A stretch of DNA of 64,000 nucleotides, from contig JAYKKM010000312.1 in assembly GCA_035772405.1 (NCBI GenBank), forward strand, positions 416,501 through 480,500, written 5' to 3'. This stretch comes from Chrysogorgia sp. JL179-B06. Lineage: Eukaryota > Cnidaria > Anthozoa > Scleralcyonacea > Chrysogorgiidae. The notes beneath the pieces were generated by a model that did not search any database, was not told where the DNA came from, and was given only the letters and a program-made list of their open reading frames with translations. Shown in pieces: positions 25,732-39,905 of the stretch. The translations under genes and the position numbers were made by a program. Numbering within the stretch: position 1 is the stretch's first letter; each line of letters opens with the position of its first letter.

Positions 25732-25897
25732 TTAAGCTTCTTAGTTGGCGGTTTGCACTTTGCAAGACTTCAAAACATGCAGCTTGCGAACTATTTTCCC
25801 GATGTCCAAATACCTTTGAATACTTTCTACTTCTTAGGATATTTGGGATGAGTTCGATTTGTGAACAGATAATTGCTTAAATACGCGAAAACTCGGC

Positions 25898-25903
25898 TTC
25901 GCC
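25898..25903 (+). repeat. left target-site duplication TTCGCC
   Basis: TTCGCC directly abuts the element's AGTAGTAG end, and the identical hexamer follows the other end at 37779-37784. Six-base duplications are characteristic of Polinton integration. Confidence 0.9.
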
Positions 25904-28900
25904 AGTAGTAGTAATATGCGGGTTTCAGCCCAAAATCTCGTAAAAATCTCGTTTTCAATCCAAAAATCTCGTTTTCGGCCCAAATCTCACTTTTTGATTT
26001 ATTCATAAAACCACGTTCCATTCTAGGGCGTGGCACGTTTCAAATGGGTCCCGAACTTATGCTAATTAGCCGTGACGTCATCATTACGCCCCGCCCACCT
26101 GTCAATCAAAACTTGTCTCACATTTCACTATGCTAATTAGCAATGGCGCCCCACCCTCAATCAAAACTTTGGTCGGCGGTCACTCGTCCTCGAATATCAC
26201 CTCCGTCATAATCTTGCAGTGACCTAGTGCCAGCGTGTTCACCCCATCTGGTAGAACGTGTCTCTTGTCGTCGTTGCTACTCAACGCGGTCTTGTTCACA
26301 GCCTCTGTGTAGATCTCGTGTTTCCTTGACCTAAATGTGTTCATTGATCTCGTCTGACTCACTCCAGAGAGCAAACAAGTCTTGTAGTCCTCAAACACGA
26401 TCGAGGATTTGACGACGTTCTTCTTCACCCCCTTACACTTTTTCGTGTCGCCGCGTAGTGTTTTGAGAGCGTATAACTTGGAGCGGAGTCCAACGAACTC
26501 GAGGACTTGCTCTCCGCTCTGTTCGTCCTTCATCATTCCAATCACCTTCTTGTTTCTCCCTATTGGAATACAGCTCGGGTGGTTCTTCGTGAAACCGGAC
26601 GTGTCGAACATCTTCTCGACGTCTCCACTGATGTCTTTGTAAAAGTCGTCTGTGAAGATCTCGTACATGAGAGAGTCGGTGTCTGTGAAAAGTAGCGTCG
26701 CCTTGTCCCCGTACTTTGGCTTGATATAGCCGTAGTGGAAGTCGTACATTATCGTCTTACTAAGGTCCAAGATGCTCATGCCCAGGTACACCGGCTTGTT
26801 GAACTTCACCTTGGTCCTCTTCATTTGGACGGCGATCAGGTTCTCGTCGAAAATCGTCCTATGGTGAAAGTTCGGCTTTGCGACTAGCGTTCTCATTCTC
26901 TTTTCCGAAGTGACTAGCCGGATATCGACCCTGTTTCGAATGTTCTCCATCGTTTTACCAAAGACGCTGTTGTTCATCAGCTTAAAAAACTCGCTCTCGA
27001 AGTTGTTCCTTGCCTGTGTCCTTAGGCTCGTGTTGAGGTCGATATACGGCTTCATCCACGCGCTCTCCTTGAAGGTGATCCCCCGATGGATCTTGGTTAG
27101 TTTCAAACCAAATCGCGTGTACATCTCGAGATTCTTCTTGTGAAGCACGTACTTGGTCTTGTCGAAGAGGTTTGGGATAAGCTTCTCCACCTTGTTCACG
27201 ACGGCTCTCTCTGGAGCCAACGGATAGTCGTTGTGAAGGTCGTGAAGCTCCTCAGGGTACTCCAGATCCACTTCCAAGATACAAGGTACGTTTCTCCAGT
27301 TCTCGAGCTGACCCTCTGTCATCCACCTAAAACCGTGTGTGGGTAATGGTTCACACATTGCGCCACCATAGAGATTGTTCTTGTCCAAGTACGGTAAAAA
27401 GACGCTTGGTTTTGTAGGGTCGTACAGCGAGTCACCAGTACGCTCTATCGTCTCGTTGCCGTTGATGTGGTCCATAAACTCGTTGTTTGCCTCAGCGTGT
27501 CTCTTTGTGATGGTCGAGACTCCACCGCGAATTCCAGCCTCGACCATTAACAACATGTCGATGTCGGTCAGTAGCTCCAACTCCACTTTCGTGATCTTTA
27601 GCAATGCGTCCCAAGCTAACCCGGGCGAGGTGTAGTAGAACGCTGGGTCCAACCCGTAGTGGGTTCTACACACTTTCCTAAAATTTTGAAAGACGTCCTC
27701 CAACAACATGACGTCGGTTTTCAAATACAAATCGTGGTACTCGCGCATCGTGGTCATACCAAAGTGTTTCCACACGTTCCTTGCGTGACCGTAATCGTCG
27801 TCACTAATGTCGCTGTCTGTGAGTCTCGAGTAAAACTCACCTTTAGGTGGCAACACCGTCTCGTCGAGTGACGCTAGTCCGGTCATGTGTTCGTAGGGGA
27901 ACACGCCTTTTTTAGACACGAGACCGAAATCTTCTCCAAAAACTCTCCTTGTCGACACCAAGTCCTTTTTGTCCAAGTTCGTGACCAAGTTGTTCAAACT
28001 ACTCGACATGAATTTGAGAGAATCGATGAACCTTATCTCCCTCTTGGTTTCGACTGTCACTCCGGCTTTGCTCGTGACTTTGTCCACAACCACCACCTTG
28101 CTGAACGAGATGTACTTTTCCTCGTTGCTCGGGATACAACTTATGGCTCCCTCCGTAACACCCAAGTTTTTGACAAACAAGTGTGCGTCGTAGCCCGACA
28201 AGTTGTGGAACACCACAGGAACGAACTTTGGTAACCTGTATTTCAAATTGCAGGTGTTGTGTGCTGCGCCTCTATATCGTCCAGACAGATGACAGTGGTC
28301 TCTGACGCGTTTTTCGTCTTCGGCGAACTCGTCACCACACAACCAACAAGTCTTGGCGTTATGGAATGCCTTCTTCTCCTTATCCCCAAAGACAATGGGG
28401 ACCGCCACCTTGAACTTGTCGTAAATATTTTGCACAGTCTCCTCCAACTTTTTTACGAAAATCTCACCCATGTTTTCGTCGTCGCTTCTCCTCGTGTAGA
28501 GATACGGTTCTTCCCAGTGTAGGTTGTCGTCGAAGCACTTTAGGTGGAAACAGAATCCAGATGGTGAGTGATGTTGGTACTGAGTCGTCGAGCTTTTCTT
28601 GGGGTTGTTGGTTGGTCCCTCCACTGGTTCGATGAACGACTCAAAGTCCGCGTAGATGACAAAGGGCACATCCTGTGTCTTGTAGAAGTTCTTGAACCCT
28701 ATTGTATCACCCCACTTTGGCATCTGGGTCCTTACACTGTCGACGTTTGAGCAATGCTCCTCGTGTTTGTCTAGGACGTTTTGACTGCCAAAACTGTTGA
28801 GACACCGACAACAGTGAAACGTCCTACCCTTATGTTTGCTCTTTGAGCTAGACAGCAATCTGCTCATGTTTTTGATCCAAACGTAGTGAGAGTTGACTTT

Positions 28901-29711
28901 GTCACCCTCACCCTGCTCCGTGATGTGTAGCATGTTGATGACGTCCTTTGAATTTCCTTGAATGAGAAGTGGGTACACACCCACTCCGTACTCGTATGCG
29001 AACACGTTCACGCTAATTTTGTTGTTCTCGGTGAACTTTCTAATATCACTCAACGGCGTCGGGAACGAGATCCCAGTCCAGTCAAACTTGTTCGAGGACT
29101 CTCTCATGGCCTCGTCGAGTCTCTCTGCGTGTTTTCTCTTAATCATCCTTGACCCGGTCGCAGCCCACTTGAAACACTCGTGATCGTTCTCGTTTTGAAC
29201 GTTGATTATGCCGTTCTTCTTAACCAACGCGTTTGGTGTAGGAATGTATGACGAGCCACTCAATGGTTTGAACGTGTCGATAAACACGTCCAACTTTACA
29301 ACGCGTAGCACTCGCCAAGAACTCCCTCTCTTCAAGTACGTCGCGAGACTTTCTAAAATCTTTCCCACCATAATGTGGTAGATATCGTCCAAGTCGGTTC
29401 CAGGTAGAGCGATAGATATGAGCGAGTGAAAATGTGCAGATACCTCAGAGTCTCCAGCGTCTGTCCTTCTCACCATGACGCACTCTAGGTCGAATTTTGT
29501 CTTTACGCCTCTCCTCTTCTCCACTTCGTGACTCCAAAGACCTTTCGCTAGCACTTTTGTGTTCGCCAAGAATGTCTTTGGGTCTACTTTCGCCGAGGCT
29601 TTTATCGTGTAGGTCTCCGAAAACCCTTTGAGAGATGTCTCCGATCTCTCCATCGCCAAGTCTTTCTCCTTGTACAAGCTAGAGATCTTTTGCTTTAAGA
29701 ATCTGAAAGCC
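25904..29711 (+). repeat. left 3,808-bp terminal inverted repeat
   Basis: Position p pairs with 63682-p in the right arm. Non-coding outer part 25904-26179 contains repeated ATCTCGTTTT blocks, GCTAATTAGC palindromes and AAAACTT(G/T)(T/G) blocks. The rest is the polymerase gene. The inner limit is where GGCTTTCAGAT ends. Confidence 0.95.
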
Positions 29712-29872
29712 ATCAAGGACACGAACGTCAAATTGGATATGGCAGTCACCCCAAACACGTGGTTGATACCGCGGAGCATGGTCTTGCTAAAAACGCCTAT
29801 CCCAGGGTACAACAATTTACTCAGAGAGTCAACAGAGACGAACATGAAATTTGGGTTTAACGACGGGCTCAA
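26180..29872 (-). CDS. polB: protein-primed family-B DNA polymerase, left copy (chimeric N-terminus)
   Basis: 1,230-aa frame; from AFRFLKQKIS onward it matches the right copy with only three amino-acid differences that I can see. Visible motifs: a C2H2-like finger, exonuclease box YADFESF, an endonuclease VII-like Cys/His cluster (CWLCGDEF...HCHLSGRYRG), Exo II FHNLSGYDAHLF, Exo III YLKTDVMLL, motif A DKNNLYGGAM, motif B KLMNNSVFGKT, motif C FTDTDSLMYE. It replicates linear DNA from a protein primer in Polintons and relatives. The first ~53 residues come from the antisense of a truncated central gene, so they are not native. The junction also makes an in-frame ATG (29711-29713) that would give 1,177 aa. 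All catalytic residues are present. Confidence 0.95.
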   Translation of the reverse strand: MSPSLNPNFMFVSVDSLSKLLYPGIGVFSKTMLRGINHVFGVTAISNLTFVSLMAFRFLKQKISSLYKEKDLAMERSETSLKGFSETYTIKASAKVDPKTFLANTKVLAKGLWSHEVEKRRGVKTKFDLECVMVRRTDAGDSEVSAHFHSLISIALPGTDLDDIYHIMVGKILESLATYLKRGSSWRVLRVVKLDVFIDTFKPLSGSSYIPTPNALVKKNGIINVQNENDHECFKWAATGSRMIKRKHAERLDEAMRESSNKFDWTGISFPTPLSDIRKFTENNKISVNVFAYEYGVGVYPLLIQGNSKDVINMLHITEQGEGDKVNSHYVWIKNMSRLLSSSKSKHKGRTFHCCRCLNSFGSQNVLDKHEEHCSNVDSVRTQMPKWGDTIGFKNFYKTQDVPFVIYADFESFIEPVEGPTNNPKKSSTTQYQHHSPSGFCFHLKCFDDNLHWEEPYLYTRRSDDENMGEIFVKKLEETVQNIYDKFKVAVPIVFGDKEKKAFHNAKTCWLCGDEFAEDEKRVRDHCHLSGRYRGAAHNTCNLKYRLPKFVPVVFHNLSGYDAHLFVKNLGVTEGAISCIPSNEEKYISFSKVVVVDKVTSKAGVTVETKREIRFIDSLKFMSSSLNNLVTNLDKKDLVSTRRVFGEDFGLVSKKGVFPYEHMTGLASLDETVLPPKGEFYSRLTDSDISDDDYGHARNVWKHFGMTTMREYHDLYLKTDVMLLEDVFQNFRKVCRTHYGLDPAFYYTSPGLAWDALLKITKVELELLTDIDMLLMVEAGIRGGVSTITKRHAEANNEFMDHINGNETIERTGDSLYDPTKPSVFLPYLDKNNLYGGAMCEPLPTHGFRWMTEGQLENWRNVPCILEVDLEYPEELHDLHNDYPLAPERAVVNKVEKLIPNLFDKTKYVLHKKNLEMYTRFGLKLTKIHRGITFKESAWMKPYIDLNTSLRTQARNNFESEFFKLMNNSVFGKTMENIRNRVDIRLVTSEKRMRTLVAKPNFHHRTIFDENLIAVQMKRTKVKFNKPVYLGMSILDLSKTIMYDFHYGYIKPKYGDKATLLFTDTDSLMYEIFTDDFYKDISGDVEKMFDTSGFTKNHPSCIPIGRNKKVIGMMKDEQSGEQVLEFVGLRSKLYALKTLRGDTKKCKGVKKNVVKSSIVFEDYKTCLLSGVSQTRSMNTFRSRKHEIYTEAVNKTALSSNDDKRHVLPDGVNTLALGHCKIMTEVIFEDE
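27752..27914 (-). other. patch of clustered substitutions between the two polymerase copies
   Basis: Fourteen base differences from the paired interval 35768-35930 lie within 163 bp; ten codons differ silently and three change residues (Pro/Ala, Gly/Asp, Asn/Lys). Sampled sequence on either side is identical or nearly so. Confidence 0.85.
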
Positions 29873-30125
29873 CTTCTCAAGTCCAAAGCCTAAGGATGTG
29901 GTGAAAACTCACTCTAGTGGAGGAGAACACCTTGAGGTATTACCTGACGTGAAGGTCAAAGCAAAGGGCACGACGACTCCCTCAACTCCTCCGAACACAC
30001 CAACGACTTCGTCTCCTCCGAACACACCCACGTCGTCTTCGACTCCTTCGTCTCCTCCGACTTCGTTGCTCCCCGTTTCGTTGGAGGTGTTGGTAGGAGT
30101 GATAGTGAGCAAATTTCTCCTTTAG
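29712..30125 (+). pseudogene. 5'-truncated central gene with Pro/Thr/Ser linker and hydrophobic C-terminus
   Basis: The plus-strand frame is open across the repeat junction to a stop at 30123-30125, but everything before 29712 is antisense polymerase, so the real 5' part is lost. What remains is about 137 codons: a region with IPRSMVLLKTPIPGYNN, then a linker of TPPNTPT/SSPP repeats, ending in a short hydrophobic segment (VSLEVLVGVIVSKFLL) like a tail anchor. Family unknown; a structural or membrane protein of the parent element is possible. It marks the breakpoint of the rearrangement. Confidence 0.6.
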
Positions 30126-30132
30126 AGAAAAG

Positions 30133-30261
30133 ATGATGATGACGATAGTTTTTGTGAACGAGCTCGTGAACTACTACTTCCCAGTCGAAAAACCAACTCT
30201 GGAGGAGGAGTGGGAGAGGGTCCTCAATCAGATCGACTCCATGTATAAAAAATGGCGGTAG
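30133..30261 (+). CDS. 42-aa mini-ORF
   Basis: Starts with three consecutive ATG codons 7 bp after the preceding stop and ends 6 bp before the next start, so it is packed like the other element genes. The product has a hydrophobic/aromatic start (IVFVNELVNYYF) and an amphipathic helix-like end (LEEEWERVLNQIDSMYKKW). Function unknown. Tight spacing is the main support. Confidence 0.5.
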   Translation: MMMTIVFVNELVNYYFPVEKPTLEEEWERVLNQIDSMYKKWR

Positions 30262-30267
30262 TAATAA

Positions 30268-31011
30268 ATGAGCTTGTACCTTGGACACGACGAACCAAAG
30301 AGAGAGAAAGACGAACGACCACCTTATGAGACCGTTTTTAATGTGAACGTTAAAAACGCAAAGGTCACCTATCATAACACCGCTGGAGGAAGCAACAAAG
30401 TGGAGCAAATAGAAGACGGGACATCTCGTCTTCATCAGAACACGTTCCTCAAGAGTCCCACTGTTGATGTCGACGCCGACTCTGTGAAGAATTTGGGGGA
30501 TAACAGAATGGTCTTCGACTGTCCAGCGCTTATGAACACCAATGTCTCTATATTTATGGTTTTCAAGTTGTTGGCTAGACCGTCGTCCGGTGGTTACGGG
30601 TACGTCGTTGGTAACGACAATGGGAGTCACGACAAATTTATAGGTTACAAAATAGGGTTTACTAATCGACTATCGTACGGTGGGGGGTGGCCTGTAAAGG
30701 AGTATAATTGTACACTACCCCCTGGTCTTGTAGGGACTGACAAACATCTCGTGTCTTGCCATTGGTTGATGAAAGGTAGTCACCTACGCGTGAACGACAC
30801 GGTGTTGTTTCGCTCAGCCTTTAACGCGAACACTAAGAGCACCGGTGCTCCGTTCGGGTCTATATTCTTCAACGAACGTTTCAATAGCGTGGAAAGAACG
30901 AAAGGCACGTCAGGCGAGATCTACGGTCTGAGAGTCGTGAAAGGTTTCTTGGAGGCGGACGACATCTCAAGGATCAACAAGAGCATGATGCTGGAGTACG
31001 ACATTTCTTAG
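30268..31011 (+). CDS. LamG/concanavalin A-like jelly-roll protein (247 aa)
   Basis: An intact frame whose middle and end read as a LamG-type beta sandwich: alternating hydrophobic strands (VSIFMVFKLL, HDKFIGYKIG, LVSCHWLMKG...LRVNDTVLF) and the closing segment EIYGLRVVKGFLEADDISRI, typical of the last strand and short helix of such domains ('aElliydraLsdeei...'). No signal peptide. In viruses and Polinton relatives such folds serve as fibre or surface-binding parts, which would fit a virion attachment role, but no capsid gene is present here. The N-terminal ~60 residues are charged and unassigned. Family call by fold-style reading. Confidence 0.6.
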   Translation: MSLYLGHDEPKREKDERPPYETVFNVNVKNAKVTYHNTAGGSNKVEQIEDGTSRLHQNTFLKSPTVDVDADSVKNLGDNRMVFDCPALMNTNVSIFMVFKLLARPSSGGYGYVVGNDNGSHDKFIGYKIGFTNRLSYGGGWPVKEYNCTLPPGLVGTDKHLVSCHWLMKGSHLRVNDTVLFRSAFNANTKSTGAPFGSIFFNERFNSVERTKGTSGEIYGLRVVKGFLEADDISRINKSMMLEYDIS

Positions 31012-31036
31012 AAAAAAGAGCTTAGAAGAAAAGGAG

Positions 31037-31156
31037 ATGATAGACACACGAAAGGCGATGGCCGACGGTTGGAAAAGGTACTTGAAGGGTTTGCGGAAAA
31101 AGGCCGAGCGGCTCAAAGACGAAATTGAAAATGGCTTAAGGAGTTGCGTGGAGTAG
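31037..31156 (+). CDS. 39-aa basic mini-ORF
   Basis: ATG at 31037, stop at 31154-31156, 7 bp before the next gene. Very Lys/Arg-rich (WKRYLKGLRKKAERLKDEI), a single amphipathic basic helix; possibly DNA- or capsid-binding. Support is its position and the absence of a gap in gene packing. Confidence 0.45.
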   Translation: MIDTRKAMADGWKRYLKGLRKKAERLKDEIENGLRSCVE

Positions 31157-31163
31157 GAACAAA

Positions 31164-32132
31164 ATGACCGAGAACACGCAGCTAACGTCCGCAAAGGGTT
31201 ACGACCCAAAAGAACACATGATCTTTTCTGATCCTGTTTCTGGAAAGATCCCAGACAGCAAAATCGAGTTTAAGAGAATCAACATTTCCACTCGCAACGA
31301 GGACGGGACGGAGGGTGAACTCATCATCCCCACCGAGCGCCTCTACTCGTTTGGAGTCTCAGAGAACACGAGTCAAGAGACTGGTGAGGTCACTGGTTTC
31401 ACCTTTCCCCTGTGTTTGTGGAACCGCGATGGTCCTACAAAAGAAGAGGAAGTCTGGGTGAACACCTTTGACGCCATCGTTGACAATTGCATCGACCACT
31501 TGGTTGAAAACCGTGAGGAGATCGAGAGACTCGAGTTGGAGCACAGTGATCTGACCAAATCCAAGGGTGGGCTAAACCCCCTCTATTGGAAGACGGAGAA
31601 GGTTGCGGACAAGAAGACTGGGAAAACCGTTCTTCGAAGGGTTCCCGGTCGTGGTCCAACGCTATATGCGAAACTGATCTACCACAAAAAGCAAGACAAG
31701 TTCCTCACACAGTTCTTTGACCCTGACAACAACCCGGTGGAGGTTCAGTCACTCATGGGAAAACACTGTTGGGCAAACGGTGCAGTGAAGATCGAGTCCA
31801 TCTTTGTCGGCGCTCGCATCTCCTTGCAAGTCAAGTTGCACGAGGTAGTCGTAGAGCCAAGCAAGATGGGGATGAAACGTCTTCTACCACTTCGAGAGGC
31901 GAAACCCAAGGTGGTCGAGTCAAAGCCAAAGGTGGTCAAGTCAAAGCCAAAGCGTGAGACAGCCAACGCGGCAATGGAATTCGTCTTTGAGTCAGACTCT
32001 GAGGAAGAAATAATTCTCTCAGAGTCAGAAGACGAGGAGAAGCCAAAGCGAACGAAAAGTGAAGAAAAAGAGTGGTGGGCAAGGAGAATTGCGCGAGCCA
32101 AATCAGGTGAGGCGTACGACACAGTCTATTGA
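31164..32132 (+). CDS. candidate viral-type ssDNA-binding protein (322 aa)
   Basis: Intact frame. Residues ~1-235 form a globular domain with TFPLCLWNRDGPTKEEEVW (about 74-95) and GPTLYAKLIYHKKQDKFLT (about 164-182), then KIESIFVGARISLQVKL. The arrangement '..L.LW..dgpT..E..w...f..i...', then '.LY.kliy....kf.T.f', then '.....i.v....slq.kl' resembles the DUF2738/DUF5871-type single-strand-binding proteins of nucleocytoplasmic large DNA viruses. The C-terminus is a Lys/Pro linker with two KPKVVxS repeats, then an acidic tail (SDSEEEIILSESEDEE), as usual in SSBs. Beside a protein-primed polymerase an SSB is expected for strand-displacement replication. The homology is inferred. Confidence 0.55.
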   Translation: MTENTQLTSAKGYDPKEHMIFSDPVSGKIPDSKIEFKRINISTRNEDGTEGELIIPTERLYSFGVSENTSQETGEVTGFTFPLCLWNRDGPTKEEEVWVNTFDAIVDNCIDHLVENREEIERLELEHSDLTKSKGGLNPLYWKTEKVADKKTGKTVLRRVPGRGPTLYAKLIYHKKQDKFLTQFFDPDNNPVEVQSLMGKHCWANGAVKIESIFVGARISLQVKLHEVVVEPSKMGMKRLLPLREAKPKVVESKPKVVKSKPKRETANAAMEFVFESDSEEEIILSESEDEEKPKRTKSEEKEWWARRIARAKSGEAYDTVY

Positions 32133-32187
32133 GGATACAAGGTGATTTTATAAGCAAAAGCTTATAAAACGAGACACGTCAAACGAC

Positions 32188-32412
32188 TCACTTGAAAGGG
32201 TCGTCCGGGATAAGCTTCTTCTGTTGCGCGTACTTTACGGCGATCGTTCCAGCGCTGATTGCGACTGCGAGTTTTAATGTTCCCACGAGCGTAGTCGGCG
32301 TGCTGAGAGACTCTCCAAGAATTTTCCTCGACACCATACTGATTCCAACTCCTGCGGCGGTGTAGAGCAAAGCGTCGTACACCTCGTTCATTATTTCCTT
32401 TCGATCTGACAT
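32188..32412 (-). CDS. small membrane protein (74 aa)
   Basis: Intact frame with two hydrophobic helices (ALLYTAAGVGISMVSR about 14-29; TLKLAVAISAGTIAVKYA about 45-62) separated by a short polar loop, and a charged C-terminus. No signal peptide; likely a two-helix membrane protein. Convergent with the gene ending at 32132 and followed on the same strand by the gene at 32446-32799. Small membrane proteins are frequent in Polintons. Family unknown. Confidence 0.6.
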   Translation of the reverse strand: MSDRKEIMNEVYDALLYTAAGVGISMVSRKILGESLSTPTTLVGTLKLAVAISAGTIAVKYAQQKKLIPDDPFK

Positions 32413-32445
32413 CCTTTATTATTGTAGTGCAAAACTTTTTTTTTT

Positions 32446-32799
32446 CTAGTCAAAAGACTCAAGGTCTGAACAATCTTTGGCCTGGTTTGAACACGATGGA
32501 GTCACCACTGGAGCGTTTGCCTCCGAGGAGTCGAAGACGACGTGGCGAGGTGGAGGCTCGTCGCCACGTTTGAAATAAAAGTACAACCCTCCAGCGACAC
32601 CAATCGCTCCAACGACGTATCCAAGCTTACCAACGAGTTGATAGCTCTGGTCTCCACCACCTCGCTCAAATTGCTCGAGTCTTTCTTGAGCCTTCTTCGC
32701 CTTTGCAGCTTTGCTAATCGCGGCGAGTCTCTTTCCTTGCTCGACCTTCTTTGGGTCCTTGGGTTTTTGGGACGTGATTGTCTCTGTTGCTTCACTCAT
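32446..32799 (-). CDS. coiled-coil, single-membrane-helix protein (117 aa)
   Basis: Residues ~14-45 form a Lys/Ala/Glu-rich helix (KRLAAISKAAKAKKAQERLE), then a Gly hinge, a membrane helix (LGYVVGAIGVAGGLYFYF about 59-76) and a polar tail. Start codon at 32799-32797 lies inside a 17-bp mirror of the next gene's start. Transcribed away from 32930, so the two genes share the repeat-rich promoter. Function unknown. Confidence 0.6.
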   Translation of the reverse strand: MSEATETITSQKPKDPKKVEQGKRLAAISKAAKAKKAQERLEQFERGGGDQSYQLVGKLGYVVGAIGVAGGLYFYFKRGDEPPPRHVVFDSSEANAPVVTPSCSNQAKDCSDLESFD

Positions 32800-32932
32800 A
32801 TCTTTATCTTACTCACAAAGATTTGCTCAAGATTTGCTCAAGATTTGCTCAAAAGTTGCTCAAAGCAAAGCCAATTTGCTCAAGATTTGCTCAAAAGTTG
32901 CTCAAAACTTTAGACAGTAAGATAAAGATATG
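32797..32932. promoter_or_regulatory. symmetric divergent promoter with TTTGCTCA repeats
   Basis: The 17-mer AGTAAGATAAAGATATG, including the ATG, occurs at 32916-32932 and as its exact complement at 32797-32813, so both divergent genes begin with an identical leader and start codon. Between them lie at least five copies of a TTTGCTCA or GTTGCTCA unit in direct order. It looks like a bidirectional promoter, possibly also a hairpin-forming or replication site. Confidence 0.65.
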
Positions 32933-33347
32933 GCAATGATGGCAGGGGGGACTATTTAACGCGCTCGCGTTCGCAGGTGCAGGGTTCCTTTTCAAGCACC
33001 TTGAGGGGAACAAATATGGTGAGGAGATCAGTCGTCACAATCTCGCAATGGAGAAACTCACGCGAGATAGGGAACTGTGGAACGAGCAAGAGGTGGCTCG
33101 CAGAGACAAAGTCTCACGACTACGTCTCGCCTTGTCGGACGCAAACCACAGCATCAACGACACGAGCGCAGCTCTCGATGTACTTTCAGCGACGCTTCGC
33201 AAGGCTGCAAAGTTCCACAAGGAACCAGAGTTGCACGACTACTACACACCGTCACCGGAGATGCAAAAGTACTTGTCGGTGACAGAGGGGGTGATGTTCG
33301 TTGGTGTCGGGTGGGCTGGGTACAAGGTGGTGGCAATTATGATCTAA
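32930..33347 (+). pseudogene. membrane protein gene with a one-base frameshift
   Basis: The ATG at 32930 is in the strong mirrored leader, but its frame stops after nine codons, directly downstream of a run of six G (about 32944-32949). Relative to that frame, a one-base change in the run would make the reading continuous with the frame that is open to 33347. The downstream frame is annotated from an internal ATG at 33048 (99 aa): a charged helical region, then a membrane helix near the C-terminus (VMFVGVGWAGYKVVAIM). Upstream bases in that frame also encode a hydrophobic segment. Homopolymer slippage, a sequencing error or true decay are all possible. Confidence 0.55.
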
Positions 33348-33373
33348 GGACAACAAAACACACCAACAAAACC

Positions 33374-33721
33374 ATGTCACTCACAAAAGCAAGCACCAAC
33401 TATCTAACCACCAGGAAATTGAAAGTCATCGCGAGAGAGCGAGGTGTTAGGCTAAAGCAAGGGGTAAAACACCGCGAGATTCTTGCAGCGTTGGGGATGG
33501 AACCTATCGTTATCCCAAAGAGATACGACCATTGTAAGACAAGGAAACTCGCCCAGGTCGTGGTCAAGACAAACGTGACCACTGGAGAAGAGACGAAGTT
33601 TGGGAGTATCTTATCGCTAGCAAGGAGCTTGAGCCTCTTTCCAGGGTCTATCACCTACCGGATAAAGACGGGGAAAAGTCTAGTCGTTGACGACATCTCC
33701 TTCACGTTTCGTAAAGAGTGA
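33374..33721 (+). CDS. small DNA-binding protein with SAP-like and NUMOD1-like modules (115 aa)
   Basis: I chose the ATG at 33374, not an earlier one, because the upstream part of the frame overlaps the previous gene out of phase. Residues ~10-40 (LTTRKLKVIARERGVRLKQG...EILAALGM) fit a SAP/helix-extension-helix fold. Residues ~60-113 (VKTNVTTGEETKFGSILSLA...GSITYRIKTGK) fit NUMOD1, a DNA-binding module normally attached to homing endonucleases. No nuclease motif is present. It lies immediately upstream of the polymerase, so a role in DNA recognition at replication or in regulation is a reasonable inference. Confidence 0.5.
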   Translation: MSLTKASTNYLTTRKLKVIARERGVRLKQGVKHREILAALGMEPIVIPKRYDHCKTRKLAQVVVKTNVTTGEETKFGSILSLARSLSLFPGSITYRIKTGKSLVVDDISFTFRKE

Positions 33722-33791
33722 GATCACCGTGCACTTGATTTTCTAACCAAAAATCAAATGAGGCTTAAAGGTATAACCTACACCCAGAAAG

Positions 33792-36700
33792 ATGTCACAA
33801 ATCCTAGACGAACCTATTCCATCAGGGCTTGGACCCACGATGGTACCCACAATGGCGAAGAAAAAGGGCCCAAGACTTCTAAAGAGGCTCGCTCTGAGAG
33901 AAAAAATGGACTCGTGGTACGATTGGCTTGTGAGTCAAACCCCAAAGCCTATCAAGAAACGAGTATTGACGGCTTTCAGATTCTTAAAGCAAAAGATCTC
34001 TAGCTTGTACAAGGAGAAAGACTTGGCGATGGAGAGATCGGAGACATCTCTCAAAGGGTTTTCGGAGACCTACACGATAAAAGCCTCGGCGAAAGTAGAC
34101 CCAAAGACATTCTTGGCGAACACAAAAGTGCTAGCGAAAGGTCTTTGGAGTCACGAAGTGGAGAAGAGGAGAGGCGTAAAGACAAAATTCGACCTAGAGT
34201 GCGTCATGGTGAGAAGGACAGACGCTGGAGACTCTGAGGTATCTGCACATTTTCACTCGCTCATATCTATCGCTCTACCTGGAACCGACTTGGACGATAT
34301 CTACCACATTATGGTGGGAAAGATTTTAGAAAGTCTCGCGACGTACTTGAAGAGAGGGAGTTCTTGGCGAGTGCTACGCGTTGTAAAGTTGGACGTGTTT
34401 ATCGACACGTTCAAACCATTGAGTGGCTCGTCATACATTCCTACACCAAACGCGTTGGTTAAGAAGAACGGCATAATCAACGTTCAAAACGAGAACGATC
34501 ACGAGTGTTTCAAGTGGGCTGCGACCGGGTCAAGGATGATTAAGAGAAAACACGCAGAGAGACTCGACGAGGCCATGAGAGAGTCCTCGAACAAGTTTGA
34601 CTGGACTGGGATCTCGTTCCCGACGCCGTTGAGTGATATTAGAAAGTTCACCGAGAACAACAAAATTAGCGTGAACGTGTTCGCATACGAGTACGGAGTG
34701 GGTGTGTACCCACTTCTCATTCAAGGAAATTCAAAGGACGTCATCAACATGCTACACATCACGGAGCAGGGTGAGGGTGACAAAGTCAACTCTCACTACG
34801 TTTGGATCAAAAACATGAGCAGATTGCTGTCTAGCTCAAAGAGCAAACATAAGGGTAGGACGTTTCACTGTTGTCGGTGTCTCAACAGTTTTGGCAGTCA
34901 AAACGTCCTAGACAAACACGAGGAGCATTGCTCAAACGTCGACAGTGTAAGGACCCAGATGCCAAAGTGGGGTGATACAATAGGGTTCAAGAACTTCTAC
35001 AAGACACAGGATGTGCCCTTTGTCATCTACGCGGACTTTGAGTCGTTCATCGAACCAGTGGAGGGACCAACCAACAACCCCAAGAAAAGCTCGACGACTC
35101 AGTACCAACATCACTCACCATCTGGATTCTGTTTCCACCTAAAGTGCTTCGACGACAACCTACACTGGGAAGAACCGTATCTCTACACGAGGAGAAGCGA
35201 CGACGAAAACATGGGTGAGATTTTCGTAAAAAAGTTGGAGGAGACTGTGCAAAATATTTACGACAAGTTCAAGGTGGCGGTCCCCATTGTCTTTGGGGAT
35301 AAGGAGAAGAAGGCATTCCATAACGCCAAGACTTGTTGGTTGTGTGGTGACGAGTTCGCCGAAGACGAAAAACGCGTCAGAGACCACTGTCATCTGTCTG
35401 GACGATATAGAGGCGCAGCACACAACACCTGCAATTTGAAATACAGGTTACCAAAGTTCGTTCCTGTGGTGTTCCACAACTTGTCGGGCTACGACGCACA
35501 CTTGTTTGTCAAAAACTTGGGTGTTACGGAGGGAGCCATAAGTTGTATCCCGAGCAACGAGGAAAAGTACATCTCGTTCAGCAAGGTGGTGGTTGTGGAC
35601 AAAGTCACGAGCAAAGCCGGAGTGACAGTCGAAACCAAGAGGGAGATAAGGTTCATCGATTCTCTCAAATTCATGTCGAGTAGTTTGAACAACTTGGTCA
35701 CGAACTTGGACAAAAAGGACTTGGTGTCGACAAGGAGAGTTTTTGGAGAAGATTTCGGTCTCGTGTCCAAAAAAGGCGTATTCCCCTACGAGCACATGAC
35801 CGGACTAGCGTCACTCGACGAGACGGTGTTGCCAGCGAAAGGCGAGTTTTACTCAAGACTTACGGACAGCGACATTAGTGACGACGACTACGATCACGCT
35901 AGGAAGGTGTGGAAACACTTTGGTATGACGACGATGCGCGAGTACCACGATTTGTATTTGAAAACCGACGTCATGTTGTTGGAGGACGTCTTTCAAAATT
36001 TTAGGAAAGTGTGTAGAACCCACTACGGGTTGGACCCAGCGTTCTACTACACCTCGCCCGGGTTAGCTTGGGACGCATTGCTAAAGATCACGAAAGTGGA
36101 GTTGGAGCTACTGACCGACATCGACATGTTGTTAATGGTCGAGGCTGGAATTCGCGGTGGAGTCTCGACCATCACAAAGAGACACGCTGAGGCAAACAAC
36201 GAGTTTATGGACCACATCAACGGCAACGAGACGATAGAGCGTACTGGTGACTCGCTGTACGACCCTACAAAACCAAGCGTCTTTTTACCGTACTTGGACA
36301 AGAACAATCTCTATGGTGGCGCAATGTGTGAACCATTACCCACACACGGTTTTAGGTGGATGACAGAGGGTCAGCTCGAGAACTGGAGAAACGTACCTTG
36401 TATCTTGGAAGTGGATCTGGAGTACCCTGAGGAGCTTCACGACCTTCACAACGACTATCCGTTGGCTCCAGAGAGAGCCGTCGTGAACAAGGTGGAGAAG
36501 CTTATCCCAAACCTCTTCGACAAGACCAAGTACGTGCTTCACAAGAAGAATCTCGAGATGTACACGCGATTTGGTTTGAAACTAACCAAGATCCATCGGG
36601 GGATCACCTTCAAGGAGAGCGCGTGGATGAAGCCGTATATCGACCTCAACACGAGCCTAAGGACACAGGCAAGGAACAACTTCGAGAGCGAGTTTTTTAA

Positions 36701-37502
36701 GCTGATGAACAACAGCGTCTTTGGTAAAACGATGGAGAACATTCGAAACAGGGTCGATATCCGGCTAGTCACTTCGGAAAAGAGAATGAGAACGCTAGTC
36801 GCAAAGCCGAACTTTCACCATAGGACGATTTTCGACGAGAACCTGATCGCCGTCCAAATGAAGAGGACCAAGGTGAAGTTCAACAAGCCGGTGTACCTGG
36901 GCATGAGCATCTTGGACCTTAGTAAGACGATAATGTACGACTTCCACTACGGCTATATCAAGCCAAAGTACGGGGACAAGGCGACGCTACTTTTCACAGA
37001 CACCGACTCTCTCATGTACGAGATCTTCACAGACGACTTTTACAAAGACATCAGTGGAGACGTCGAGAAGATGTTCGACACGTCCGGTTTCACGAAGAAC
37101 CACCCGAGCTGTATTCCAATAGGGAGAAACAAGAAGGTGATTGGAATGATGAAGGACGAACAGAGCGGAGAGCAAGTCCTCGAGTTCGTTGGACTCCGCT
37201 CCAAGTTATACGCTCTCAAAACACTACGCGGCGACACGAAAAAGTGTAAGGGGGTGAAGAAGAACGTCGTCAAATCCTCGATCGTGTTTGAGGACTACAA
37301 GACTTGTTTGCTCTCTGGAGTGAGTCAGACGAGATCAATGAACACATTTAGGTCAAGGAAACACGAGATCTACACAGAGGCTGTGAACAAGACCGCGTTG
37401 AGTAGCAACGACGACAAGAGACACGTTCTACCAGATGGGGTGAACACGCTGGCACTAGGTCACTGCAAGATTATGACGGAGGTGATATTCGAGGACGAGT
37501 GA
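33792..37502 (+). CDS. polB: protein-primed family-B DNA polymerase, right copy (native start)
   Basis: 1,236 aa. The first 60 residues, basic and unique to this copy (e.g. AKKKGPRLLKRLALREKMDS), are the probable native N-terminus. Approximate positions: zinc-finger-like CCRC...H...C at 358-380; Exo I YADFESF 412-418; endonuclease VII-like Cys/His cluster 515-550; Exo II FHNLSGYDAHLF 561-572; Exo III YLKTDVMLL 721-729; motif A DKNNLYGGAM 836-845; motif B KLMNNSVFGKT 970-980; motif C FTDTDSLMYE 1067-1076. It copies linear DNA by strand displacement from a protein primer; the exonuclease proofreads. Length and order match Polinton-type pPolB. Residues 61-1236 lie in the inverted repeat. Confidence 0.97.
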   Translation: MSQILDEPIPSGLGPTMVPTMAKKKGPRLLKRLALREKMDSWYDWLVSQTPKPIKKRVLTAFRFLKQKISSLYKEKDLAMERSETSLKGFSETYTIKASAKVDPKTFLANTKVLAKGLWSHEVEKRRGVKTKFDLECVMVRRTDAGDSEVSAHFHSLISIALPGTDLDDIYHIMVGKILESLATYLKRGSSWRVLRVVKLDVFIDTFKPLSGSSYIPTPNALVKKNGIINVQNENDHECFKWAATGSRMIKRKHAERLDEAMRESSNKFDWTGISFPTPLSDIRKFTENNKISVNVFAYEYGVGVYPLLIQGNSKDVINMLHITEQGEGDKVNSHYVWIKNMSRLLSSSKSKHKGRTFHCCRCLNSFGSQNVLDKHEEHCSNVDSVRTQMPKWGDTIGFKNFYKTQDVPFVIYADFESFIEPVEGPTNNPKKSSTTQYQHHSPSGFCFHLKCFDDNLHWEEPYLYTRRSDDENMGEIFVKKLEETVQNIYDKFKVAVPIVFGDKEKKAFHNAKTCWLCGDEFAEDEKRVRDHCHLSGRYRGAAHNTCNLKYRLPKFVPVVFHNLSGYDAHLFVKNLGVTEGAISCIPSNEEKYISFSKVVVVDKVTSKAGVTVETKREIRFIDSLKFMSSSLNNLVTNLDKKDLVSTRRVFGEDFGLVSKKGVFPYEHMTGLASLDETVLPAKGEFYSRLTDSDISDDDYDHARKVWKHFGMTTMREYHDLYLKTDVMLLEDVFQNFRKVCRTHYGLDPAFYYTSPGLAWDALLKITKVELELLTDIDMLLMVEAGIRGGVSTITKRHAEANNEFMDHINGNETIERTGDSLYDPTKPSVFLPYLDKNNLYGGAMCEPLPTHGFRWMTEGQLENWRNVPCILEVDLEYPEELHDLHNDYPLAPERAVVNKVEKLIPNLFDKTKYVLHKKNLEMYTRFGLKLTKIHRGITFKESAWMKPYIDLNTSLRTQARNNFESEFFKLMNNSVFGKTMENIRNRVDIRLVTSEKRMRTLVAKPNFHHRTIFDENLIAVQMKRTKVKFNKPVYLGMSILDLSKTIMYDFHYGYIKPKYGDKATLLFTDTDSLMYEIFTDDFYKDISGDVEKMFDTSGFTKNHPSCIPIGRNKKVIGMMKDEQSGEQVLEFVGLRSKLYALKTLRGDTKKCKGVKKNVVKSSIVFEDYKTCLLSGVSQTRSMNTFRSRKHEIYTEAVNKTALSSNDDKRHVLPDGVNTLALGHCKIMTEVIFEDE

Positions 37503-37778
37503 CCGCCGACCAAAGTTTTGATTGAGGGTGGGGCGTCATAGCTAATTAGCATAGTGAAATGTGAGACAAGTTTTGATTGACAGGTGGGCGGGGCGTAATG
37601 ATGACGTCACGGCTAATTAGCATAAGTTCGGGACCCATTTGAAACGTGCCACGCCCTAGAATGGAACGTGGTTTTATGAATAAATCAAAAAGTGAGATTT
37701 GGGCCGAAAACGAGATTTTTGGATTGAAAACGAGATTTTTACGAGATTTTGGGCTGAAACCCGCATATTACTACTACT
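33971..37778 (+). repeat. right 3,808-bp terminal inverted repeat
   Basis: Mirror of 25904-29711. The likely donor copy, because the polymerase reads through its inner edge into a native-looking N-terminus while the left edge cuts another gene. Non-coding end 37503-37778 has two differences from the left arm near 37540-37546 and no indels. Confidence 0.95.
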
Positions 37779-37784
37779 TTCGCC
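37779..37784 (+). repeat. right target-site duplication TTCGCC
   Basis: Identical hexamer to 25898-25903, directly abutting the ...CTACTACT end. Confidence 0.9.
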
Positions 37785-37989
37785 TAAGTAAAACTATATA
37801 GCGTGGTCACAGAAAGTGCTCACTCCAAGATGGCCGCCACGAGTAACTTCCGGCTTCAATTTGTGTGACTCCGAAACAATAGGTTGCTCGATCCAGTCCT
37901 ATTTTTGAGATCAGTGATCCACTTCGCAGAAGCCAAACGAAAATAAATATGCATGCCGCAGAAGATCCCGCTGAAATACTTATCTAACC

Positions 37990-39490
37990 ATGGTAATTAG
38001 TAAGGTAGAGAACGGGAGTGCTGGAACCTGAAGAGAAATTCGAAGAACGCTACAACTTGGGAATAGTTAAAGTTGCCGCCAAATTAAAGGGAGGACAAAT
38101 ACCAGTAAGGCTATTCAACCCTTCATCAACAGCCAACAGAGTCTACAAGGGTAGCAAAGTTGGCAAATTCTGTCCTTTGGTGGATGAGAACGAATTGGCT
38201 AACTCGGGTTTTTACTATTTCATACCCAAAAGAAAAGTTACAGCGAAGAATAGTGGAACTTGTTCAATGACAAGTAGAGACTGACACGAATCCGGCACAG
38301 AACATCGAAAACGTATTTCCTATCAACAATCCATCACTGACAGAGATCGAAACAATGATGAATGGGTTTGAATGGATTTGCAGATATGAATGGGTTTGAA
38401 TGGGTTTGCAGATATGGTGTCATGCAACGACTACATACCGATCAAGGCAAAAACCTTGAAAGCAACATTTTCAAATAAATGACCAGCATCCTTGGAATCA
38501 AAAAGACACGAACTACTCCATTTCACCCACAAAGTGATGGACTGGTGGAGAGAATGAACCGCAGCCTAAAGGACATGCTTTCAAAATTAGTAAACGATCA
38601 ACAAAATGATTGCGACATGTGGATTCCTCAAGTATTATTGGCCTACTGATCTACAGTTAAAAGTTCGACTGGTTTCTCCCCTCACCGTTTGATGTTTGGA
38701 AGAGAAGCGAAGGTTCCAATCCACCTAATGGTACCAGGACCTCCTGACGAAGAACACCCCACAACAAACACATAATTCATCGACAACATGAAACGGCGCT
38801 TCCAAGAAGCATACGAGCTGACCCGGAAGAACACAAGGAGATCAGCACAACGATACAAGGAATACTATGATGCAAGATCAAGTGGCGCATAATACAGCAT
38901 TGGGGACAGGGTGTGGCTTCATGTGCCCTACGTAAAAAGAGGCAAGAACAAAACGTTATCGCGGCCATGGCAAGGTCCGTATGTTGTCGTAAAAAAGCTT
39001 GCAGATGTGGTTTATCGCATAGAGATTGAAGGCAATAAAAGGAAAAGAATCGTAGTCCATTTTAACCGACTAAAAAGATGTTTCACTGCACCAGTGGGGC
39101 AACGGCCGCCCCTAACCAAGGAAATCACCCAACAAGGAGAGGAAGTAAAAGGCAACGACTACAAGAAAGTCGACATAGAAGCGACGAGGAAGGGTGGACA
39201 ATTGTGTCACACCACAGGAAAGATGCGAGATAGTACCGAAAGCAGAAGGAACCGACAACAACCAGAGAATCAACCACGCAACCAAATAAGCTGACACAGC
39301 GACAGAATTAATCACTCAACCACGAGGTGCCCTGGACATGACAAGCGGTAGTCCAATGTGGCGTGTAGACACAGATCAATCTTCATCGGAAACAACACAG
39401 TTGCAGACAGTTGAACCAAGTCATACTGCGAGAGAGGAACGACCTAGGCGCATGAGAAAGAAACCATATCGGTTGGAATATCACCGATAA
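37990..39490 (+). pseudogene. second Ty3/Gypsy pol remnant (internally deleted)
   Basis: 38018-38284 reads the spacer after a Gypsy protease (IPVRLFNPSSTANRVYKGSK). RT and RNase H are missing. From ~38435 the integrase core end appears (RTTPFHPQSDGLVERMNRSL, with the catalytic Glu), then LAY...STVKSSTGFSPHRLMFG, and 38911-39294 holds the C-terminal module (GDRVWLHVPYVK...LSRPWQGPYVVVKKL) with stops between. The piece ends near 39490 with RPRRMRKKPYRLEYHR. No LTRs located. It belongs to a different lineage from the 10636 element. Confidence 0.85.
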
Positions 39491-39554: not shown

Positions 39555-39905
39555 AAGGTGTGTAAATTAGCACACCTTTTCTGTCCAAAAAACTACACAC
39601 CTTAAGATGGGTTAAACAACACACCTTAAGGTGTGTTTCTGACTTGTCCAAAAAACAACACACCTTAAGGTGTGTTCTATGAAAAGGTGTGTTAACTAAC
39701 ACACCTTGGTGTGTTATCTAACACACCTAGGTGTGTTATCTAACACACCTTGGTGTGTTATATAACACACCATAAGGTGTGTTATCTCACACACCTTGAG
39801 GTGTGTTATCGGTAACACACCTTAAGGTGTGTTATTGGTAACACACCTTAGGTTGTGTTATCTAACACGCCTTAAGGTGTGTTATCTAACAAAGCTTTGA
39901 TGTTA
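39555..39905. repeat. left subterminal AAGGTGTGTTA array
   Basis: Roughly twenty copies of ACACACCTT/AAGGTGTGT spaced 8-25 bp with variable spacers such as TATC, TGG and TTATT. Orientation alternates, which forms palindromes. It encodes nothing. Confidence 0.9.

What the first reader, a model, noticed from the sequence alone, without database searches (positions are those of the whole stretch)
25904..37778. Polinton-like element whose 3.8-kb inverted repeats each encode the DNA polymerase
Polinton inverted repeats are normally a few hundred bases up to about 1 kb and do not contain the polymerase. Here each 3,808-bp arm holds codons 61-1236 of pPolB plus the terminus, both facing outward around a 4,259-bp core. 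Ends (AG...CT) and a 6-bp duplication (TTCGCC) are exact on both sides, so this is one integrated unit. A linear replicon with a polymerase gene at both ends could double polymerase dosage and let either end seed repair of the other. I know of no described Polinton with this layout.
Basis: partly seen in the sequence, partly recalled or inferred. Interest (0 to 1): 0.92.

Follow-up and report, generated by a model that had tools for sequence, protein, structure and literature searches.

The report
Mirror-ended defective Polinton with two polymerases
In an octocoral genome, one virus-like Polinton element carries its polymerase-bearing right end twice, as mirror images, in place of its left half, which likely arose when the element's own replication switched strands and copied back, and six other places in the same genome carry left-end sequence as a mirrored pair.

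Summary
In detail: two 3,808-bp arms, a 4,259-bp core, AGT...ACT ends and a TTCGCC duplication; relatives of the target repeat show the empty site. The arms differ at 16 sites, 14 of them within 163 bp, so one is not a plain assembly copy of the other. The layout is a derivative. The same genome (COX1 97% identical to octocorals) holds ordinary 16.6-17.9-kb relatives with the polymerase at the right end only. Here the left 8.7 kb, which in a relative encodes integrase and A32-type ATPase, is replaced by an inverted copy of the right 3.8 kb, joined at a 6-bp microhomology inside a 550-codon gene. The exact junction was found once. A marker census found 1 right-right element (this one), 6 left-left pairs without polymerase marker, 44 left-polymerase pairs at full-length spacing, 11 short ones, and 38 left ends without polymerase mate. 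The 3 left-left junctions read are all different. Most likely these are copy-back (defective-genome-like) products of end-initiated replication, integrated with integrase supplied in trans. The switch before integration is inferred; chromosomal repair through the terminal repeats would look the same at this locus. Double dosage or a propagating double-polymerase form is not supported.

The parts
25898..25903 (.). left copy of the 6-bp target duplication TTCGCC
25904..29711 (-). left arm: inverted second copy of the right end (terminal repeat plus polymerase codons 61-1236 and the last base of codon 60)
26180..29713 (-). left polymerase frame, 1,177 aa, starting at an ATG made by the junction; lacks the first 59 codons
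   Evidence: expression not tested
27752..27914 (-). patch in the left arm (163 bp) with 14 of the 16 arm differences; matching stretch in the right arm 35768-35930
29706..29711 (+). junction microhomology AAAGCC, shared by polymerase-type and core-type sequence
29712..30125 (+). 3' remnant of a gene that is 550 codons long in relative C265 (function unknown)
30268..31011 (+). core ORF, 247 aa, no Pfam or NCBIfam family
31164..32132 (+). core ORF, 322 aa, DUF2738 (PF10927), E 1.9e-64
33792..37502 (+). intact polymerase frame, 1,236 aa; predicted fold of its last 749 residues matches phi29 DNA polymerase; Endonuclease_7-like stretch at residues 510-549 (below Pfam cut-off)
33971..37778 (+). right arm: the native right end
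37503..37778 (+). terminal region from polymerase stop to element end; its counterpart at the left is 25904-26179
37779..37784 (.). right copy of the 6-bp target duplication TTCGCC

Best explanation
This is an 11.9-kb deletion derivative of a 16.6-17.9-kb octocoral Polinton in which an inverted second copy of the polymerase-bearing right end replaces the left 8.7 kb, likely made when the element's polymerase, while copying a linear molecule inward from its right end, switched strands at a 6-bp microhomology and copied back out to the end before the product integrated. Step by step: synthesis would start at the right terminus, run about 8.07 kb inward to 29712, jump at AAAGCC onto the complementary strand at polymerase codon 60/61, and copy 3.8 kb out to the same terminus, giving a molecule with two right ends. 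Both ends carry the AGT...ACT terminus found on the relatives, so an integrase supplied by a full-length relative could insert it and leave a 6-bp duplication. The anatomy, junction, missing half and target duplication are shown; the template switch, its timing before integration and the supply of integrase in trans are inferred.
For: Relatives carry the polymerase at the right end only and a different left half. The window keeps the right 8.07 kb and lacks the left 8.67 kb of relative C265. Junction: polymerase-type to 29705, shared AAAGCC 29706-29711, core-type from 29712; random joins of the same sequences share 6 or more bases in 0.21% of trials. Junction query matches whole only here (40 of 321 candidates scored, 1 site with up to 3 mismatches). 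Both arms run to the exact terminus, with 6-bp duplication and 5 of 5 empty-site relatives read. The polymerase tail is predicted to fold like phi29 DNA polymerase bound to terminal protein, i.e. a protein-primed, end-starting enzyme. Inverted-end forms recur from the other end: six opposed left-left marker pairs spaced 11.7-12.3 kb, with three different junctions in the three read.
Against: The same picture at this locus would come from repair after integration through the terminal repeats. No second copy of the window junction was found. Two of the three left-left junctions read share few or no bases, so microhomology is not general. Arms of 3 of the 5 left-left pairs seen with the second marker carry different marker words, so those arms are not recent copies of one another or have recombined. 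A single-base microhomology statistic for one event is weak. No free linear form was observed.
Confidence: 0.6

Rival explanations
1. Post-integration repair: a full-length Polinton integrated here, later broke in its left half, and the left stub used its terminal repeat to invade the right terminal repeat, copied 3.8 kb of the right end and was then joined at microhomology to the core.
For: Terminal repeats of about 280 bp and more are nearly or fully identical in several relatives (7 of 17 pairs at 100% in the best-matching stretch), so the homology needed exists; the result would keep the outer ends and the target duplication.
Against: Needs a break, an invasion and an end-joining instead of one switch; the six left-left pairs have nearly the same spacing, which independent chromosomal repairs would not predict, although selection or shared ancestry could give it.
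Confidence: 0.27
2. A functional double-polymerase Polinton that propagates in this form: two genes raise dosage and the arms repair each other.
For: Both polymerase frames are open, the left one with a new ATG; the family polymerase is under purifying selection (dN about 0.02, dS about 0.2, 6 of 7 comparisons).
Against: Junction found once; 1 opposed polymerase pair among 62 marker sites; left gene lacks 59 codons and its normal upstream region; the integrase and ATPase half is missing; the arms carry a 14-difference patch that mutual repair has not erased.
Confidence: 0.05
3. Assembly artefact: one arm is a duplicate or a fold-back chimera.
For: No reads could be examined, and the family has at least 62 polymerase-end marker sites.
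Against: Arms differ at 16 sites, 14 of them clustered (0 of 20,000 random placements as clustered). The outer left flank is not an inverted copy of the right flank but the other half of the same target repeat, with the exact 6-bp duplication. The join is at 6 bp. Six mirror-image marker pairs exist elsewhere.
Confidence: 0.05

Closest known systems
Polinton/Maverick elements of animals
   Same: AGT...ACT ends, 6-bp target duplications, phi29-like polymerase (predicted fold), integrase and A32-type ATPase in the full-length relative; sizes as in vertebrate Mavericks (PMC8097293, section 7 and passages)
   Different: this copy has 3.8-kb inverted repeats with the polymerase in both and lacks the integrase and ATPase half
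Terminal duplication-deletion variants of poxviruses (mpox 2022, PMC10230479, abstract; MVA-CR19, PMC11680203, passages)
   Same: sequence of one genome end is duplicated, inverted, to the other end, replacing sequence there, so the terminal repeats grow
   Different: poxvirus ends are hairpins and replicate differently (recalled); those variants are viruses in culture or patients, this is one integrated copy without an integrase gene
HCMV AD169/Towne variants (PMC2885757, passages)
   Same: a region at one end replaced by an inverted duplication from the other end
   Different: herpesvirus, much larger genome, another replication mode (recalled)
Copy-back defective viral genomes
   Same: one end lost and replaced by the complement of the other, giving long self-complementary termini (definition recalled, not taken from a call)
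   Different: best known from RNA viruses (recalled); helper dependence and interference were not tested here
Polinton-like viruses with long terminal repeats
   Same: inverted repeats of hundreds to thousands of bp (PMC12220804, passages; PMC4642659, passages)
   Different: in the passages read I saw no statement that the polymerase lies inside the repeats; supplements were not read

Membership tests
[quoted passage not shown]
   predicted fold of the last 749 residues, top hits phi29 DNA polymerase; Pfam and PDB sequence searches did not name it
Polinton/Maverick (autonomous element) | retrovirus-type integrase | tested here: not met
   absent from the window element's scanned ORFs; present in relative C265 as rve (just below cut-off) plus chromo domain
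Polinton/Maverick (autonomous element) | terminal inverted repeats with AGT/ACT ends and 6-bp target duplication | tested here: met
   12 of 13 other elements whose ends were read
Polinton/Maverick (autonomous element) | packaging ATPase | tested here: not met
   absent from the window element's scanned ORFs; Pox_A32 match in C265
Polinton/Maverick (autonomous element) | capsid proteins | tested here: inconclusive
   no ORF of the window element or of C265 was recognised as capsid
Copy-back defective genome | one end deleted and replaced by an inverted copy of the other | tested here: met
Copy-back defective genome | formed by template switching during replication | tested here: inconclusive
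   6-bp microhomology and left-left forms fit; chromosomal repair not excluded
Copy-back defective genome | helper dependence and interference | not testable with these tools
   missing integrase and ATPase imply helper dependence; interference needs experiments

The most novel reading that the evidence does not exclude
A split Polinton: right-right and short forms that carry the polymerase, and left-left or polymerase-less forms that carry integrase and packaging ATPase, complement one another and spread as a multipartite population generated by copy-back replication.
Probability: 0.12. Interest if true: 0.87.

Novelty: new variant of a known kind. Interest (0 to 1): 0.66.

Why it matters
Polinton replication has been inferred mainly from gene content (recalled). 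Mirror-ended derivatives are by-products expected of replication that starts at the ends of a linear molecule. Finding them from both ends in one genome, beside full-length relatives, makes switch points, trans-mobilisation and the free replicating form testable. It also warns that long terminal repeats in Polinton catalogues may be rearrangements and not ancestral layouts.

Tried and rejected
Artefact: judged unlikely on arm differences, flank anatomy and mirror relatives, but reads were not available. Propagating double-polymerase form: junction found once. A close donor for the patch: none seen; the nearest scored copies are 97% (left arm's version, 40 of 160 candidates scored) and 96% (right arm's version, 40 of 96 scored). 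Capsid identity of the gene cut by the junction: fold model poor (pLDDT 42.7) and profile search without a significant match, so no capsid claim is made. Viral contigs: no relative of the polymerase confirmed. One lineage of short forms: the 4 short copies in the polymerase tree do not form one cluster and right breakpoints of the 5 examined differ, but recombination weakens that tree. Literature: no paper with Polinton and octocoral; one listing for Polinton with defective interfering, an astrobiology review not read further; nothing on polymerase-bearing Polinton repeats in the titles and abstract starts listed (20 of 24 listed). The library holds open-licence PMC papers only, and the 2006 Polinton paper was not held. 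An adenovirus precedent for mirror-ended defective DNA was recalled but not confirmed in the passages read, so it is not used.

Full report
What is there. The window lies in a 781-Mb, 522-contig assembly (C312:416501-480500). Its COX1 is 97% identical to clusters named Ellisellidae and Coelogorgia, both octocorals. Arms 25904-29711 and 33971-37778 are inverted copies of 3,808 bp around a core of 4,259 bp. Ends read AGTAGTAGTAAT...ATTACTACTACT and TTCGCC lies on both sides. The target was a dispersed repeat: in 5 of 5 relatives read, matches to the left and right flank overlap by exactly six bases, which is the empty site. So the 11.9-kb unit sits between one pair of target duplications.

The arms are not identical. 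They differ at 16 sites: two in the terminal region (arm positions 239 and 243) and 14 between positions 1849 and 2011. In 0 of 20,000 simulations did 14 of 16 random sites fall within 163 bp. At 13 of the 14 patch sites both window letters occur among 23 other family copies; at one site the right-arm letter is private. Ten of the 13 affected codons are synonymous. I read the patch as a recombination or conversion tract from another copy. At the two terminal sites, 22 of 22 terminal sequences that contain the search word (of 36 ends looked at, 14 lacked it) agree with each other, so each arm carries one private change. Outside the patch 2 of 3,645 sites differ, so the duplication is young relative to the family, whose polymerase genes (24 loci compared) are 92-96% identical.

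What the normal element looks like. At C265 the whole unit is 16,627 bp with terminal repeats of about 280 bp, and other pairs of terminal matches span up to 17.9 kb. Twelve of 13 other elements whose ends I read have AGTAGT ends and a 6-bp duplication; for the thirteenth (C504) no left end was found. In C265 the left half encodes a 200-aa Pox_A32 ATPase (E 2.2e-14) and a 361-aa protein with integrase core (E 4.8e-7, just below Pfam's cut-off) and chromo domain (E 8.5e-7). The polymerase lies at the right end. Its last 749 residues, modelled with 51 homologues (pLDDT 79.3), match phi29 DNA polymerase bound to terminal protein best (E 3.2e-15); Pfam and PDB sequence searches did not name it. 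Against the window copy, dN is 0.019-0.023 and dS 0.19-0.21 in 6 of 7 comparisons (the seventh failed on frame), so the family polymerase is under purifying selection.

The rearrangement. The window element keeps the right 8.07 kb and replaces the left 8.67 kb by an inverted copy of the right 3.8 kb. Polymerase-type sequence runs to 29705, core-type from 29712, and AAAGCC (29706-29711) is common to both. Random joins of the same sequences share 6 or more bases in 0.21% of trials. The join lies inside a gene that is 550 codons long in C265; that gene has 12 unnamed homologues and no recognised family, and its model is poor. The join also turns polymerase codon 60 into an ATG, so the left copy is open for 1,177 aa without its first 59 codons. 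A 341-bp junction query matches over its whole length only here; the other scored matches hold one half or the other (40 of 321 candidates scored). A 33-base junction word with up to 3 mismatches finds 1 site.

The census. A 43-base word near the polymerase end (up to 3 mismatches) has 62 sites, and the only two within 25 kb of each other are the window's opposed pair. Two left-end words gave 104 sites (100 listed) and 96 sites, merging to 107 left-end features. Of these, 57 have a polymerase site downstream in the same orientation: 44 at 14.6-15.9 kb (full-length spacing), 11 at 5.9-6.9 kb (short), one at 9.9 and one at 30.0 kb. Twelve form six opposed left-left pairs 11.7-12.3 kb apart (C3, C174, C375, C384, C439, C461) with no polymerase site between. 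Thirty-eight have neither; their right ends were not read. Five polymerase sites have no left mate, two of them the window's. Sites with more than 3 mismatches and 4 unlisted sites are missed, so the counts are incomplete; some of the 38 may have a diverged or lost mate.

The mirror class. At C3, C439 and C461 the element runs normally to window-equivalent positions about 33361, 33355 and 33609, upstream of the polymerase start at 33792, and then continues with the inverted left end from L009 coordinates about 2278, 2467 and 2228. Closer reading gives three different joins: C3 within about 20 imperfectly shared bases, C439 with a few shared bases at most, C461 with none. I infer separate origins. 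Only one end and one junction of each was read, so their target duplications and arm identities are untested; the other three left-left loci rest on marker positions alone. At the second marker the two arms carry the same word at C174 and C461 and different words at C375, C384 and C439; C3 was not listed. So inverted-end derivatives arise from both ends, and the gene sets are complementary: right-right keeps polymerase and lacks the integrase and ATPase half; left-left lacks polymerase.

Mechanism. A molecule whose synthesis starts at its ends needs one strand switch to make such a product: the growing strand leaves its template at 29712, anneals at AAAGCC to the complementary strand at polymerase codon 60/61 and copies out to the end. 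This explains why the arm stops exactly at the terminus, why both termini could serve the integrase, and why both ends of the family give such forms. Recombination among copies is common: within 100 bp, site pairs are more compatible than in 1,000 of 1,000 shuffles, which fits co-replication of several genomes in one cell, though ectopic conversion would also do. The main rival, repair inside the chromosome through the terminal repeats, cannot be excluded from this locus alone. I give copy-back before integration 0.6 and repair after integration 0.27.

Comparison. The phenomenon is known in other linear DNA viruses: mpox genomes with up to 18.2 kb duplicated to the opposite end and up to 16.9 kb deleted there (PMC10230479, abstract), MVA-CR19 (PMC11680203, passages) and HCMV AD169 and Towne variants (PMC2885757, passages). 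Vertebrate Mavericks have terminal repeats of 46-1,447 bp, sizes of 12.7-24.6 kb and mostly (AGT)2 ends (PMC8097293, section 7; 6-bp duplications in passages). I saw no report of polymerase-bearing or mirror-ended Polintons in the listings. Because integrase and ATPase were tested and not found, I file the element not as an autonomous Polinton but as a non-autonomous, mirror-ended Polinton derivative: a new variant of a known kind.

Noticed in passing
L082, L083, L084 (C3, C439, C461); marker pairs at C174, C375, C384: Left-left mirror elements: the polymerase end is replaced by an inverted left end (three junctions read, all different); three more loci seen by marker words only.
   Followed up: partly
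L020-L023, L080 (C504, C294, C87, C143, C22): Short forms of about 8 kb: internal deletions joining a left breakpoint near L009:3618-3690 to right breakpoints between about window-equivalent 32075 and 32860, keeping the polymerase; 11 left-polymerase pairs at 5.9-6.9 kb spacing in the census.
   Followed up: partly
38 left-end features listed, e.g. C34:680585, C96:4922309: Left ends with no polymerase mate and no left mate; 10 of them have a match to the 550-codon gene. Right ends not read.
   Followed up: no
polymerase genes of 24 loci: Nearly star-like tree with signs of recombination among copies at short range, more like a replicating population than a simple burst from one copy.
   Followed up: partly
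37779-37916 and 25757-25903: The element sits inside a dispersed repeat (L044-L048) whose copies show the empty site.
   Followed up: yes
38911-39294: Fragment of a retroelement integrase C-terminus (Integrase_p58_C, E 3.2e-14) next to the element.
   Followed up: no
39685-39894: Array of about 22-bp palindromic units (GGTGTGTTA...TAACACACC).
   Followed up: no
32821-32906: Short tandem repeat in the core that is expanded in the short copy C294.
   Followed up: no
G000:C460: COX1 recurs about every 19.0 kb on one contig, so this is probably a head-to-tail assembly of the mitochondrial genome.
   Followed up: no
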